DNA of 64,000 bases from assembly GCF_019429565.1 (NCBI RefSeq), contig NZ_JAHXSA010000001.1:186001-250000 (forward strand). The letters run 5' to 3'. The DNA is from Schaalia sp. ORNL0103 (lineage in GTDB: Bacteria > Actinomycetota > Actinomycetes > Actinomycetales > Actinomycetaceae). Positions 5,806 through 51,497 of the stretch are shown here, one piece after another. Every line of letters starts with the position of its first letter. The first letter of the stretch is position 1. The notes under the pieces are model-generated. The model was not told where the DNA came from and ran no database searches. It saw nothing but the letters and a program-made list of their open reading frames with translations. Position numbers and translations under genes: made by a program.

Positions 5806-5884
5806 GTCGGTGCGCGGGTGGGCTCGTGCTGGTGTGGTGGTTGTGCTTGTGGGCGCGCTGGTGTGGTGGCTCTCGGAGCGAGCT

Positions 5885-6036
5885 CATCCGGATAGGTAAC
5901 GAACATCCGGATAGGTAACGAACATCCGGATAGGTAACGAACATCTGGATAGGTAATGAACATCCGGATAGCTTATTAACCTATCCGGATGTGGCTAACC
6001 TATCCGGAAGCGCGCAACCTATCCGGATGCGCACCC
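5885..6036. repeat. Array A1: eight contiguous 19-bp units, 5 direct then 3 inverted
   Basis: Five direct units start at 5885, 5904, 5923, 5942 and 5961; the first three are identical (CATCCGGATAGGTAACGAA). Three inverted units start at 5980, 5999 and 6018 (first: CCTATCCGGATGTGGCTAA). Every unit is exactly 19 bp, a 13-bp core with palindromic ATCCGGAT plus a 6-bp variable tail, with no gap at the switch of orientation. The central units form an 11-bp inverted repeat around CTTATTAAC. Non-coding. The spacing and dyad suggest a multi-copy protein-binding site, but no function is known to me. Confidence 0.85.
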
Positions 6037-6213
6037 TGGCCTGGCTTGGCGCGGTACTGGGGCCTCATACGTCGCCCTGGCTTGGCGCGGTGCCCTGACC
6101 TGGTCGGATTCGATGCCTGGGCTGAGCTTGGCTCGGCGCCCGGTCCTGGCTTTGTGGGTTGGGTGGACTGTGGGGTGCGCATCTCGGCGCGTGCGTAGGT
6201 GGATGGGCGTGAG

Positions 6214-6346
6214 TATCCGGATAGGTAACGAACATCTGGATAGGTTATGAGCATCCGGATAGCTTATTAACCTATCCGGATGTGGCTAACCTATCCGGAA
6301 GCGTGCAACCTATCCGGATGCGCGTAACCTATCCGCGTGGTGTCGG
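6214..6346. repeat. Array A2: seven contiguous 19-bp units, 3 direct then 4 inverted
   Basis: Direct units start at 6214, 6233 and 6252; inverted units at 6271, 6290, 6309 and 6328. The unit family is that of A1. The central ~50 bp (6252-6301) is nearly identical to 5961-6010 of A1, so the dyad core was duplicated while the number of flanking units differs. The 177 bp between A1 and A2 hold no gene; they contain GC-rich imperfect repeats of CCTGGCTTGGCGCGGT. A2 ends about 80 nt before the DUF4230 gene. Confidence 0.85.
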
Positions 6347-36328: not shown

Positions 36329-36889
36329 ATGAAGAAGACGACCTCTTCCCTGTTCGCCGCCACCGCGGCACTCGGTCTGATCGCCGCTTCGGCCGGCGTT
36401 GCTTTCGCCGCCGAGACCCCCGTCACCGAGCAGCCCTCGACCCCGGCCACCGAGGCCCCGGCCACCGAGCAGCCCTCGACCCCGGCCACCGAGGATCCGG
36501 CCCCCGAGCAGCCCTCGACCCCGGCCACCGAGGATCCGGCCCCCGAGCAGCCCTCCACCGAGGACCCGACTCCCGAGCAGCCCGCTACCGAGGATCCGGC
36601 CCCCGCCGTCGACCCGGCCCCCGCCGCCGATCAGGGTGGCGCTGGCGCTGCCTCCGGCCCCGTCGGCACCACCGGCGTGACCACCCGCGGCCAGATCTCC
36701 ACCGGCAACGGCCCGGCCCCCGTCTCCGCTCGTGGCGGCATCCGCAATACGAACGCTCCGGCCGGCACCCCCGCCGCCTCGAACCCGACGCTGGCCAACA
36801 CCGGCTCCGTCGCTTCGATCGCCGCTGGCGCTGGCGTTATCGCGCTGGCCGGTGGCGTGACCCTGGTGGTTGCTCGCAAGCGCCACTGA
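36329..36889 (+). CDS. Small LAxTG-anchored surface protein with Pro/Thr/Glu repeats
   Basis: 186 aa. Signal peptide KKTTSSLFAATAALGLIAASAGVAFA, then a repeat region (~30-95) built from EQPSTPATEDPAP-type units: three of 13 residues and two of 10. A Gly/Ala/Thr linker follows, then a sorting signal LANTG (L155-G159), a hydrophobic helix and the basic tail ARKRH. LAxTG is the motif recognised by class E sortases in high-GC Gram-positives. The protein is probably a stalk or spacer on the wall. The near-identical 39-bp DNA repeats should vary in number between strains. CAGGAGAAAC precedes the ATG. Confidence 0.82.
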   Translation: MKKTTSSLFAATAALGLIAASAGVAFAAETPVTEQPSTPATEAPATEQPSTPATEDPAPEQPSTPATEDPAPEQPSTEDPTPEQPATEDPAPAVDPAPAADQGGAGAASGPVGTTGVTTRGQISTGNGPAPVSARGGIRNTNAPAGTPAASNPTLANTGSVASIAAGAGVIALAGGVTLVVARKRH

Positions 36890-48283: not shown

Positions 48284-48354
48284 ACTGCGTTGCCTCACGT
48301 TTCGACTGGAGAGTCGTGGCATATCTCCACACTGATACTTGTTGCTAAGTGGTG

Positions 48355-48450
48355 TTACACCACTTAGCGGGGTGTTACACCAGCTCGGAGGTGGTGTAAT
48401 GCTCCCTAACTCGTGTAATGCTCCTTAACTGGTGCAGGGCTGTCTGCTGT
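48355..48450. repeat. Array B1: mirrored 19-20-bp units (GTGTAATGC type)
   Basis: Inverted units with TTACAC at 48355 and 48375 face direct units at 48394, 48413 and 48432 (GTGTAATGCTCCCTAACTC, GTGTAATGCTCCTTAACTG, GTGCAGGGC...). The direct arm has an exact 19-bp step. This opens a ~1-kb non-coding region (48284-49342) that contains four arrays and no gene. Confidence 0.7.
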
Positions 48451-48520
48451 GGCTTGGTTGGATGCTTGTTGGAGCTGTTATGGAGCAGCATTTTCCGCGA
48501 CGGGGCTTGTTGGCCAGTGG

Positions 48521-48620
48521 CATTGCACTAGTTAGCGCAGCATTGCACTGCTTAGTAGCTAGTGCAATGCCCTCCTATCTAGTGCATTGCTGCTGTATCT
48601 GGTGCAGCGCTGCGCGGCCT
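48521..48620. repeat. Array B2: five 20-bp units, 2 inverted then 3 direct
   Basis: Units start at 48521 and 48541 (CATTGCACTAGTTAGCGCAG, inverted) and at 48561, 48581 and 48601 (AGTGCAATGCCCTCCTATCT, AGTGCATTGCTGCTGTATCT, GGTGCAGCGC...). The step is exactly 20 bp. Same word family as B1 (GTG[C/T]AATGC). A diverged copy is at 51254-51333. Confidence 0.75.
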
Positions 48621-48691
48621 GGGCCTATTGGATACCCGCATGTGTAGTGTCAGCGAGGCAACCTGCGTGCAAGCTTGATGTCGATGAGGCG

Positions 48692-48785
48692 GTGCACCCG
48701 ATCCGTAGGCATTGCACCCCTTCTGATCGGGTGCATCGCGACGGATCGGGTGTATCGCGACGTAACGGGTGCAGCGCCTCTTGCG
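48692..48785. repeat. Array C1: mirrored 19-bp units (GGGTGCATCGCGAC type)
   Basis: Inverted units with TGCACCC at 48694 and 48714, then the centre CTTCTGATC, then direct units at 48729, 48748 and 48767 (GGGTGCATCGCGACGGATC, GGGTGTATCGCGACGTAAC, GGGTGCAGCGCCTCTTGCG), an exact 19-bp step. Confidence 0.8.
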
Positions 48786-48888
48786 CGGAATCGGTACGAG
48801 TATTTCGAGGCCGTGTGGCTGCGTCTGATCCTGCCGGTTGTGGTGTGTCGGGAGGGAGTGCCCGCGGTTGTGCTTGTTGTGGGAGGCG

Positions 48889-49001
48889 GTGCACCCGATC
48901 CGTAGGCATTACACCCCTTCTGATCGGGTGCATCGTGACGTAACGGGTGTAGCGCGACGTAACGGGTGCACGGCGACGTAAGGGGTGCACCGCTGCCTGT
49001 T
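48889..49001. repeat. Array C2: mirrored 19-bp units (GGGTGCATCG type)
   Basis: Same design as C1: inverted part, centre CTTCTGATC at 48918, then direct units at 48926, 48945, 48964 and 48983 with a 19-bp step. An 88-bp stretch (48864-48951) recurs at 51064-51151 with two differences. The rest of the region up to the malic enzyme gene (49002-49342) shows no further array. Confidence 0.8.
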
Positions 49002-49342
49002 GTAGCCGGGATGGTGGGCCGTTGAAGAGTGAACGGGAGCGCCTTGCCGTCTGGGGCTCGTGGGCGATGAGGTGCGACACCCCATCGGGAGCAGGATCAC
49101 CAGACACCGTGGCCTTGCTGCGCGTTGATTATCCAGCCGCAGGTGTGATCGCCGGGGGAAGCAAGCACAGCCATGTAGCACGTGAATTCCTGCGTGGAAC
49201 AACGCAATCGAACCGTGCGCCCCCGCCAACTTCATGAGGCCGCGTATTCCTGGGAGCCCGCTGAGAGAATGCCAAACGATAGACGGGGACAGCGGCGTGC
49301 AACTGGTTTACGCTGAAAACAGCTACCAGAAAGGAGCCGCTG

Positions 49343-50992
49343 ATGCCAGCAAAACCGCAGATCATTGCCGATCCTCAGACCAACCGTGGGACCGCCTTCA
49401 CCCTCGACGAGCGCAAGCGCTTGGGGCTGATGGGGCGTCTTCCCGCAGCTGTCGAAACGCTCGAACAACAGGCCGCACGCGCCTACAAGCAGGTGTGTCG
49501 ACTCGACGACGACCTCGACAAGTACATCTACCTCGAACAGCTGCACGACCGCAATGAGACGCTGTACTACAAGGTCATCATCGACCACATCGCCGAACTC
49601 CTACCCGTCATCTACGATCCGACGATCGGCGAGGCCATCAAGAAATGGTCCGCAGACTACCGCCGCTCGCGCGCCATCTACCTCTCCGTCGATCGAGTCG
49701 AGGATGTGCGGCCCACGTTTGAAGGCCTCGGCCTCGGCCCCGATGACGTCGACCTTCTGGTCGTCTCCGACGCCGAACAGATCCTCGGCATCGGCGACTG
49801 GGGTGTGAACGGCACCGACATCTCCGTCGGCAAGCTCGCCGTCTACACAGCCGCAGCCGGTATTGACCCGTCGCGCGTCATCGCGGTCAACCTCGACGTC
49901 GGCACCGACAACGAGGAGCTGCTCAACGACCCCGATTACCTCGGCAACCGCCATGGTCGTGTGCGCGGAGAACGCTACGACGCCCTCGTCAATGAGTACT
50001 TGAGCGTCACATCCGAGCTGTACCCCCGCGCACTCCTGCATTTCGAAGACTTCGGCGCCTCAAACGCGCGCCGCATCCTCGTCAACAACCGGGACAAGTA
50101 CCGCATCTTCAACGACGACATGCAGGGCACCGGAGCGATCGTCATCTCCGCTGTCATTGCGGGCATGAAGACCAACGGCACGACCTTCGCGGACCAGCGC
50201 CTCCTTGTCTACGGCGCGGGCACCGCGGGAACTGGCATGGCCGATCAGATCCATGCGGGCATGGTGCGCGCTGGACTGACGCCCGAGCAGGCGAAGGACC
50301 GCATCTGGCTGATCGACCGCGCCGGACTGGTGACCGATGACATGGACGGGCTGCCCGATTATCAGGCGGCCTACGCGCGCAGCGCCTCCGAGGTCGCCGA
50401 CTGGGAGCGCAAGGACGGTGCGATCGGCCTGCTGGAGACCGTTCGCCGCGTCCACCCGACGATCCTGATTGGAACGTCGACGGATCACGGCGCCTTCACG
50501 CAGGATGTCATCGAGTCTTTGAGCGAGGGGTGCGAGCGGCCCATCGTCCTGCCCCTGTCGAATCCGACGGAGAAGATCGAGGCTATGCCGCAGGACGTCA
50601 TCGCCTGGTCTAAGGGGCGTGCGCTGGTGGCCACGGGCATTCCGATCCTGCCCTTCGACTACGAGGGGACAACCTTCCACATCGGGCAGGGAAACAACTC
50701 GTTGCTGTACCCGGGCCTGGGGCTTGGAACGATCGTGTCCGGTGCCCCTCGCGTGACCGATGCGATGATTCTGGCCGCCGCCGAGGCCGTGGCCAGTCAG
50801 GTGACATCGCACGAGCTGGGTGCGTCCCTACTGCCGCCGGTGGACCACTTGCGCGCGTCGTCGGCGACTGTCGCGGTCGCCGTCGTCCGTCAGGCTATCG
50901 CAGATGGCCAGTGCGACATGGATCCGGGTGACGTCGTCGAGGCCGTTCGCCGCGCCATGTGGCAGCCGGTCTACCAGGACCTGGAGAGCTGA
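49343..50992 (+). CDS. NAD-dependent malic enzyme
   Basis: 549 aa, the long (MaeA-like) form, with AAAGGAG before the ATG. It converts malate to pyruvate and CO2. Features: GTAFTLDERKRLGLMGRLP, ETLYYKVIIDHIAELLPVIYDPTIG, the substrate region YPRALLHFEDFGASNARRIL, RIFNDDMQGTGAI, and the dinucleotide loop LLVYGAGTAGTGMADQI. LSNPTEKIEAMPQDVIAWSKGRALVATG is the usual C-terminal conserved block. The gene is flanked on both sides by related non-coding array regions, which could recombine and delete or duplicate it. Confidence 0.94.
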   Translation: MPAKPQIIADPQTNRGTAFTLDERKRLGLMGRLPAAVETLEQQAARAYKQVCRLDDDLDKYIYLEQLHDRNETLYYKVIIDHIAELLPVIYDPTIGEAIKKWSADYRRSRAIYLSVDRVEDVRPTFEGLGLGPDDVDLLVVSDAEQILGIGDWGVNGTDISVGKLAVYTAAAGIDPSRVIAVNLDVGTDNEELLNDPDYLGNRHGRVRGERYDALVNEYLSVTSELYPRALLHFEDFGASNARRILVNNRDKYRIFNDDMQGTGAIVISAVIAGMKTNGTTFADQRLLVYGAGTAGTGMADQIHAGMVRAGLTPEQAKDRIWLIDRAGLVTDDMDGLPDYQAAYARSASEVADWERKDGAIGLLETVRRVHPTILIGTSTDHGAFTQDVIESLSEGCERPIVLPLSNPTEKIEAMPQDVIAWSKGRALVATGIPILPFDYEGTTFHIGQGNNSLLYPGLGLGTIVSGAPRVTDAMILAAAEAVASQVTSHELGASLLPPVDHLRASSATVAVAVVRQAIADGQCDMDPGDVVEAVRRAMWQPVYQDLES

Positions 50993-51088
50993 ATTGTGAG
51001 AGCAGGGTCGCGCCGGTTGCCGAGGGGCAGCCGGCGCGGCTTCTTGCGAGACGGAACGTTTTCGCGGTTGTGCTTGTTGTGGGAGGCG

Positions 51089-51182
51089 GTGCACCCGATC
51101 CGTAGGCATTGCACCCCTTCTGATCGGGTGCATCGCGACGTAACGGGTGTATCGCGACGGAATGGGTGCAGGGCTGTCTGCT
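51089..51182. repeat. Array C3: mirrored 19-bp units (GGGTGCATCGCGAC type)
   Basis: Inverted part, centre CTTCTGATC at 51118, direct units at 51126, 51145 and 51164 (GGGTGCATCGCGACGTAAC, GGGTGTATCGCGACGGAAT, GGGTGCAGGGCTGTCTGCT). It begins about 100 bp after the malic enzyme stop. The left part duplicates C2. Confidence 0.8.
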
Positions 51183-51253
51183 GTGGCTCGGCTGGAGGCT
51201 CGTTGGAGCTGTTATGGAGCGCATTTACCGCGACAGAGCTTGTTGCCGAGGGG

Positions 51254-51333
51254 TATTGCACTACTTAGCGCAGCGTTGCACTGGATAGTTGGCAGTGCAA
51301 TGCTCTCCTATCTAGTGCATTGCTGCGTGAGCC
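51254..51333. repeat. Array B3: four 20-bp units, 2 inverted then 2 direct
   Basis: Units start at 51254, 51274 (TATTGCACTACTTAGCGCAG, inverted), 51294 and 51314 (AGTGCAATGCTCTCCTATCT, direct). Diverged copy of B2. Confidence 0.7.
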
Positions 51334-51393
51334 AGGCCTGTTGGATGCTGGTATGTGCAGTGTCAGCGAGGAAACCCGCGCGCAAGCTTGTTA

Positions 51394-51497
51394 CCGATGA
51401 GGTGTTGCACCCGATCGGGAAGATTCAACCCCTTCTGATCGGGTTGAATCTTCCCGAACGGGTTGAATGTTCCCGATCAGGTTGAATCTTGCCGCGC
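51394..51497. repeat. Array D: mirrored 19-bp units (GGGTTGAATCTTCCC type)
   Basis: Inverted units end in ACCC at 51412 and 51431, the centre CTTCTGATC is the same as in C1-C3, and direct units start at 51441, 51460 and 51479 (GGGTTGAATCTTCCCGAAC, GGGTTGAATGTTCCCGATC, AGGTTGAATCTTGCCGCGC). The outermost left unit still reads TGCACCC as in family C, so the array is a mosaic. Confidence 0.8.

What the first reader, a model, noticed from the sequence alone, without database searches (positions are those of the whole stretch)
48355..51497. A family of arrays with the same period and dyad but different unit words
Seven arrays around the malic enzyme gene use three unit types: B (GTGTAATGCTCC), C (GGGTGCATCGCGAC) and D (GGGTTGAATCTTCCC). 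All step by 19 or 20 bp and are arranged as inverted units, centre, direct units. C1, C2, C3 and D share the same centre CTTCTGATC. Aligned on the TAAC/GAAC word, B, C and D share a frame (TAAC-nnGTGnAAT), and the A arrays at 5.9 kb share the period and TAAC tail. It looks as if the architecture is fixed and the recognised word changes, as for sites read by paralogous or fast-evolving DNA-binding proteins. I know no described element of this kind.
Basis: partly seen in the sequence, partly recalled or inferred. Interest (0 to 1): 0.85.

Follow-up and report, generated by a model that had tools for sequence, protein, structure and literature searches.

The report
Repeat arrays with matching nuclease genes
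The repeats around this malic enzyme gene belong to several dispersed families of short DNA elements, and in this and related bacteria such families flank their own gene for a nuclease-like protein that has changed along with the repeat's sequence, which suggests a little-known partnership between repeats and enzymes.

Summary
Seven dyad arrays flank the malic enzyme gene, and in a 464-kb sample of the genome a 19-bp lag stands out. Ninety-six arrays of word A follow one plan: spacing 19 bp (347 of 360), 1-bp centre (89 of 93), most often three inverted plus three direct units. In 35 genomes of the genus (Schaalia group) I found a paralogous family of about 360-residue proteins with a Vsr/DUF559-like C-terminus. 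Many of the genes are flanked on both sides by their own word: A in 9 of 9 genes of the A clade; B, C, D, E, F and others in other clades. Words follow the protein tree (12 changes for 13 groups, the minimum). The N-terminal half diverges when the word changes; the nuclease half much less. In several clades the gene keeps its place but evolves faster than its neighbours. The best analogue is RAYT/REPIN: a vertically inherited enzyme with a population of non-autonomous repeats. Enzyme fold, repeat structure and flank orientation differ, so it is not a RAYT. Binding, cutting and copying are inferred. B and D are orphans in this genome.

The parts
48338..48444 (+). B1 array: end motif CTTGTTG, 2 units of period 20, centre 48387, 3 units of period 19 (GTGTAATGCTCC)
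48505..48613 (+). B2 array (TAGTGCAATGC type, period 20), centre 48555
48673..48778 (+). C1 array (GGGTGCATCGCGAC), centre 48724, CTTCTGATC
48870..48993 (+). C2 array, centre 48921, CTTCTGATC; end motif GTGCTTGTTG
49343..50992 (+). malic enzyme gene lying between C arrays; found in only 4 of 35 genomes of the genus at E<=1e-100 (one partial)
51070..51170 (+). C3 array, centre 51121, CTTCTGATC
51238..51330 (+). B3 array (period 20), centre 51288
51386..51494 (+). D array (GGGTTGAATCTTCCC), centre 51436, CTTCTGATC; end motif CTTGTTA
5884..6032 (+). A array 1 (TAACCTATCC), 5 inverted + 3 direct units, 1-bp centre
6210..6335 (+). A array 2, 3 inverted + 4 direct units

Best explanation
The arrays are non-autonomous members of dispersed repeat families. 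Reader genes sit between copies of their own array (mostly direct copies), are kept vertically at fixed loci under purifying selection, and maintain or occasionally copy the arrays, as RAYT does for REPINs. Arrays then also serve as homology for recombination, which reshuffles clusters and can bracket cargo such as the malic enzyme. SHOWN: architecture, dispersal, flanking of readers by their own word, co-divergence of word and reader, shared neighbours of readers within clades, presence/absence and rearrangement of arrays. INFERRED: binding, catalysis, copying, cargo capture. In this genome A and C readers are present outside the window; no B or D reader was found, so B and D arrays are orphans here.
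For: Fixed plan in 96 A arrays. Readers were found by protein similarity, not by their arrays; 9 of 9 A-clade genes have A arrays on both sides; C readers have C arrays on both sides in 5 of 5 genomes, B readers B in 2 of 2, the D reader of G001 D, F readers F in 2 of 2; E readers E on both sides in 6 of 6, two of them by single weak matches per side; single genes M, N, Q, S, T by eye. Word-blind flank test: 53 of 77 family genes above the 95th percentile (43.1 bits) of 109 control genes, 46 direct and 7 inverted. Tree: 13 word groups (36 labelled rows of 75), 12 changes = minimum, shuffled mean 24.8, 0 of 200 as low. N/C halves: same word (C) 70-77/75-82% identity; C vs D 54-59/76-93; C vs B 44-47/77-85. 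Invariant E221, D252, E263, D265, K269 in 28 aligned readers. A pairs are abundant (46-161) in 10 genomes, 9 of which hold the A reader; none of the other 25 does. dN/dS in 14 pairs below 0.3 except one N-half pair at 0.56. Shared neighbours within clades.
Against: No binding or cutting data. Nuclease profile matches are weak: the two readers scanned singly are below Pfam cut-offs, and 11 and 8 of 28 match at E<0.01; some members do pass the DUF559 cut-off in the genome search, among them the A reader of G021 at 21.0 against 20.6 bits. The structure model is poor (pLDDT 37). 24 of 77 family genes show no flank repeat above threshold, among them a whole clade (L227-L230) next to the A clade. 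Word K lies on one side only in L210 and L217 and was not found at L204; word O on one side only at L255. G020 keeps 86 A pairs without an A reader. Readers of B, D and K are more conserved than most of their compared neighbours. No target-site duplication or clean excision product was seen; one site without the array was examined closely. Outside the genus the association is a minority finding (10 of 24 testable in the family, 3 of 16 in the class).
Confidence: 0.7

Rival explanations
1. The readers are transcription regulators or chromosome-organising proteins and the arrays are their operators or anchor sites; flanking arrays serve autoregulation and nothing is mobile.
For: Regular multi-site dyads, purifying selection and shared neighbours of readers; arrays on both sides could autoregulate.
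Against: Arrays are rare between divergent genes: 36 convergent, 28 tandem, 7 divergent of 71, where 16, 34 and 21 are expected by intergenic length. Array number and order at one locus differ between relatives. A nuclease-like half is conserved.
Confidence: 0.2
2. The reader genes are selfish endonuclease genes (homing or restriction-like) that move between arrays; arrays are landing or att-like sites and recombination debris.
For: Gene between direct copies of its flank repeat (46 of 53); tandem gene copies in G010 with identical spacer stretches; malic enzyme with C arrays on both sides in this genome and in G023, and between a truncated C copy and a C array in G021, where G005 has one C array and G013 four and no malic enzyme.
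Against: Readers share neighbours across species in the clades compared; no relative of the A reader in the plasmid or phage collections; in the ten A genomes A pairs (46-161) far outnumber readers.
Confidence: 0.2
3. RNA elements: transcribed dyads form hairpins that end or protect transcripts.
For: Enrichment between convergent genes.
Against: Linkers of opposite arms are no more alike within an array (4.46 of 9) than between arrays (4.83), while cores are 8.98 of 10; no Rfam match in the window except a tRNA.
Confidence: 0.04
4. Decayed insertion-sequence ends or plasmid iterons.
For: 19-22-bp repeats are typical of iterons (recalled).
Against: A arrays occur as 46-161 pairs per genome in ten genomes, nearly always with a 1-bp centre. 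I did not search for rep genes or transposases beside the arrays; neighbours were only compared with each other.
Confidence: 0.03

Closest known systems
RAYT/REP(IN) systems (REP-associated tyrosine transposases; PMC2817692 and PMC8049555, passages read)
   Same: Enzyme gene flanked by two copies of its own repeat; many dispersed non-autonomous copies, also orphan ones; repeat and enzyme trees agree; enzyme vertically inherited and not observed on plasmids
   Different: Enzyme is Vsr/DUF559-like, not a Y1/HUH transposase; repeats are 19-20-bp iterated dyads, not GT(A/G)G-headed hairpin palindromes; flanking copies mostly direct, not inverted; several paralogues per genome
Vsr-like / DUF559 (PF04480) and REase_MTES_1575 (PF18741) nucleases (PMC12907096 and PMC3710099, passages read)
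   Same: C-terminal half matches these profiles weakly and keeps invariant acidic residues
   Different: The passages I read describe mismatch-repair or conflict roles and do not mention cognate repeats; here a variable N-terminal half and flanking arrays
Plasmid iterons and partition sites (recalled)
   Same: Tandem units of 19-20 bp
   Different: Dispersed dyads with exact centre; a Rep or Par gene was not looked for

Membership tests
RAYT/REP | Y1 (HUH) transposase domain in the enzyme | tested here: not met
   Pfam scan of 28 readers: only PF18741, PF04480 and RAP at E<0.01
RAYT/REP | gene flanked by two copies of the cognate repeat | tested here: met
   A clade 9 of 9; 53 of 77 family genes in the word-blind test, 24 not
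RAYT/REP | flanking repeats in inverted orientation | tested here: not met
   46 direct, 7 inverted of 53; the arrays are themselves near-dyads
RAYT/REP | repeat is a hairpin-forming palindrome with GTAG-type head | tested here: not met
   linkers of opposite arms do not match each other; unit head is TAAC/GATC-like
RAYT/REP | repeat and enzyme co-diversify | tested here: met
   12 changes for 13 word groups, minimum possible, 36 labelled rows of 75; the label of one of them (L204) rests on its relatives only
RAYT/REP | vertical inheritance, not on plasmids | tested here: met
   shared neighbours within clades, weak for K; A reader has no match in plasmids or phages
RAYT/REP | enzyme copies its repeats | not testable with these tools
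   needs an experiment
Vsr/DUF559 nuclease | significant profile match | tested here: inconclusive
   best E 4.3e-5 (PF04480) and 1.9e-4 (PF18741) among 28; two readers scanned singly are below the cut-offs; the A reader of G021 is just above that of PF04480
Vsr/DUF559 nuclease | conserved acidic active-site residues | tested here: met
   E221, D252, E263, D265, K269 invariant in 28 readers; assignment to catalysis inferred
MITE of an insertion sequence | terminal inverted repeats plus target-site duplication | tested here: inconclusive
   one site with and without the array (L187/L156): about 170 bp in place of 34 bp, no duplication seen
plasmid iteron | rep gene and origin beside the repeats | not tested
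   neighbours were only compared with each other by blastp

The most novel reading that the evidence does not exclude
A second, independent kind of domesticated repeat-nuclease partnership: Vsr-like endonucleases with a swappable N-terminal reading domain, each breeding its own population of iterated-dyad arrays; the wider DUF559-like family does the same with other dyad architectures, and the arrays act as landing sites that carry genes such as the malic enzyme between species.
Probability: 0.4. Interest if true: 0.95.

Novelty: new variant of a known kind. Interest (0 to 1): 0.85.

Why it matters
It would give the poorly understood DUF559/MTES_1575 nucleases a partner and a possible role, and show that repeat populations tied to a vertically inherited enzyme arose outside the RAYT family. 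Matched pairs of word and reader (A, B, C, D, E, F ...), with B, C and D readers sharing 76-93% identity in the nuclease half but only 42-59% in the N half, are a natural experiment for learning how a protein changes DNA specificity.

Tried and rejected
Generic DUF559 association: 30 PF04480 loci of the genus, 2 with lag-20 arrays within 1.5 kb, no excess; the link appeared only with the right subfamily and a word-blind test. RNA hairpins: disfavoured. Viral origin: no A pair in viral contigs and no confirmed reader relative there (26 pattern matches, none confirmed). Solved structures: no relative (the single row, E 0.56, is not significant). Single-sequence AlphaFold model: too poor for a fold search. 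Inverted-repeat score of flank repeats: 16 of 53 above the control's 95th percentile (100 intergenic segments), weak support. The tool's control column is void, as the pattern equals its own reversal; the control is not zero (10 in G007, 8 in G008). Searches read loci of minus-strand hits in the wrong orientation and are replaced; one search has the same fault for downstream word counts and was redone for chosen loci. In the tree I first labelled some rows from their relatives; one search then found E on both sides of all six E genes, O on one side of L255, K on one side of L210 and L217, and no K at L204. Papers (listings): DUF559 with repeats, MTES_1575 (59), RAYT/endonuclease (77, 15 of 2,250 listed), Vsr with interspersed repeats (78), REPIN/RAYT (93), DUF559 alone, 14 papers (94), Schaalia repeats (26; 95, 10 of 40 listed): nothing listed links this nuclease family with cognate repeats; only open-licence PMC papers are held.
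Full report
OBSERVATION. The window lies in a 2.35-Mb genome of 4 contigs. Its word A occurs, among named genomes, in five Schaalia/Actinomyces-type genomes, two of them filed under other genus names, and in 3 of 71 stretches from unrelated organisms that look like chance. The seven arrays are real: a detector that knows no word puts dyad centres at 48387, 48555, 48724, 48921, 51121, 51288 and 51436 with scores not reached in a 374-kb random null. Lag 19 stands out in the window and in a 464-kb sample (14 clusters, 6 of them in the window; 2 at lag 20; 5 in all at the other non-multiples of 3 from 11 to 60 apart from 38). C1-C3 and D share CTTCTGATC.

ARCHITECTURE. I chained word A (up to 2 mismatches) in the window, 20 sampled stretches and 68 of the 71 loci (3 from unrelated organisms dropped). 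Of 96 arrays, spacing is 19 bp in 347 of 360 steps, the centre gap is 1 bp in 89 of 93, and inverted units precede direct ones wherever both occur; 3+3 is the commonest form (38). Aligned on the centre (82 arrays), information sits in three units per arm and is near zero in a fourth. A unit is TAACCTATCC plus a loose RNATS and linker. At position 4 of the two central units one arm has C and the other G in 60 of 84 arrays, both C in 23, both G in 1, so the centre is asymmetric, by selection or by descent. B, C and D obey the same 1-bp centre rule, with one arm of period 20 in B and C; many B, C and D elements end in CTTGTTG or CTTGTTA on one side. Linkers of opposite arms do not match each other within an array, which speaks against hairpin RNA and for separate binding sites.

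MANY WORDS, ONE PLAN. A search for TAAC-N15/16-TAAC-N15/16-TAAC in 35 genomes of the genus found 14 with matches, in different words: CTATCC (A), GGGTGCA (C), CCCCTTGATACGCACG (E), CCTGCCCCAATGC (F) and others (the control column is not zero in several genomes).

THE READERS. One C array pair in this genome brackets a gene on contig 3, and A arrays bracket a similar gene in a relative. Searching the genus with that relative's protein gave a paralogous family, up to 6 hits per genome, in 33 of 35 genomes. For 77 of these genes I looked for arrays. All 9 members of the closest clade (60-100% identity) have A arrays on both sides. C readers in five genomes have C arrays on both sides; two B readers have B arrays; the D reader of G001 has D arrays on both sides and each of two gene fragments in G024 has a D array on the side that is present; F readers of G007 and G008 have F arrays. 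Six E readers have E matches on both sides, weak in two. By eye, five single words (M, N, Q, S, T) lie on both sides of their genes. Word O flanks one G010 copy on both sides and L255 on one; word K lies on one side of two genes and was not found at a third. A word-blind test, blastn of the left against the right 900-bp flank, put 53 of 77 family genes above 43.1 bits, the 95th percentile of 109 control genes of this genome (the controls include the C reader itself and a few genes with long duplicated flanks). In the tree of 75 proteins (two fragments dropped) 13 word groups, 36 labelled rows, need 12 changes, the minimum, against 24.8 in shuffles; 39 rows without a label are not counted.

The C half matches PF18741 (REase_MTES_1575) and PF04480 (DUF559) weakly and keeps E221, D252, E263, D265 and K269 in all 28 aligned. 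The secondary structure of a poor single-sequence model runs helix, three strands, helix, strand, as expected for this nuclease fold (weak evidence). C readers are 70-77% identical to each other in the N half and 75-82% in the C half; C and D readers 54-59 and 76-93; C and B readers 44-47 and 77-85. So the N half is the likely reading domain. dN/dS is 0.10-0.56 (N) and 0.06-0.27 (C) in 14 pairs, with synonymous sites near saturation in some. Within clades the genes share neighbours. The A reader is 60% identical between G024 and G000 where three neighbours are 84-100%; the C reader 75% between G000 and G005 where neighbours are 88-99%; E readers 58-91% where neighbours are 91-99.7%.

COUNTS. 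A pairs number 46-161 in exactly ten genomes, one each in two others and none in 23; nine of the ten have the A reader, G020 does not. B/C-type pairs occur in the same ten. The ten are probably one clade, so this is not ten independent events. In this genome, the search found five family members: the A reader (C1:333851-334900), the C reader (C3:11670-12686) and three distant ones; no B or D reader, so these arrays are orphans.

THE MALIC ENZYME LOCUS. The gene is found in 4 of 35 genomes (one partial). In this genome it lies between C2 and C3; in G023 C arrays lie on both sides, with B and D arrays, in other numbers and order; in G021 a truncated C copy lies on one side and C, B, C and D arrays on the other. 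G005 has one C array and G013 four at the same junction of neighbouring gene and helicase, without malic enzyme. The C3-B3 junction here looks like a recombinant of a C and a B element seen apart in G023 (by eye). Cargo capture by recombination between arrays fits, but loss of the gene elsewhere is not excluded.

PLACEMENT. Of 71 A arrays (of 96) with two called neighbours, 36 lie between convergent genes, 28 between tandem and 7 between divergent ones, against 16, 34 and 21 expected by intergenic length (gene calls are by a simple script). This argues against promoters.

BEYOND. In other genera of the family 10 of 24 testable readers (one of 25 too short) have direct flank repeats above 51 bits, where 234 crossed pairs reach at most 48.3; in the class 3 of 16 testable of 30, one of them inverted. 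Of the more distant DUF559-like clade of the genus, several genes are flanked by dyads of another plan (GGGGGGTTTGGCAGCATTAG ... CTAATGCTGCAATTCCCCCC around CGGCGTGTCG), again with a changed word in a relative (by eye).

VERDICT. Shown: real, repeated architecture; words tied to paralogous nuclease-like readers. Inferred: binding, cutting, copying. Works like RAYT/REPIN (PMC2817692, PMC8049555; passages read) but fails its defining enzyme fold, hairpin and inverted-flank features, so it is filed as a variant of that kind of system and not as a member.

Noticed in passing
L037 7395-7535 and 8050-8165; L031 13220-13345; L039 7666-7767; a variant with GCATGCAATTCC at L031 about 505-620: A second dispersed element of about 100-140 bp with inverted ends (GCACGTAATTC ... 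GAATTACGTGC) lies beside array clusters; whether it has a gene of its own was not looked for.
   Followed up: partly
L041 8205-8285: GGGGGTTTTGCACTAC ... GTAGTGCAAAACCCCCC with CGGCGTGTCG inside: same plan as the elements flanking the distant DUF559-like gene in L277 (word TTGCACTAC), while the related gene in this genome (L265) is flanked by word GGCAGCATTAG.
   Followed up: partly
   Followed up: no
L254 2638-5933 (G010): Two identical reader proteins encoded in tandem with identical flank stretches (628 and 203 bp at 100%), as if a unit had been duplicated by recombination.
   Followed up: no
window 36424-36605: Tandem repeats of 39 and 30 bp inside an open reading frame that would give a proline/threonine/glutamate-rich stretch.
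   Followed up: no
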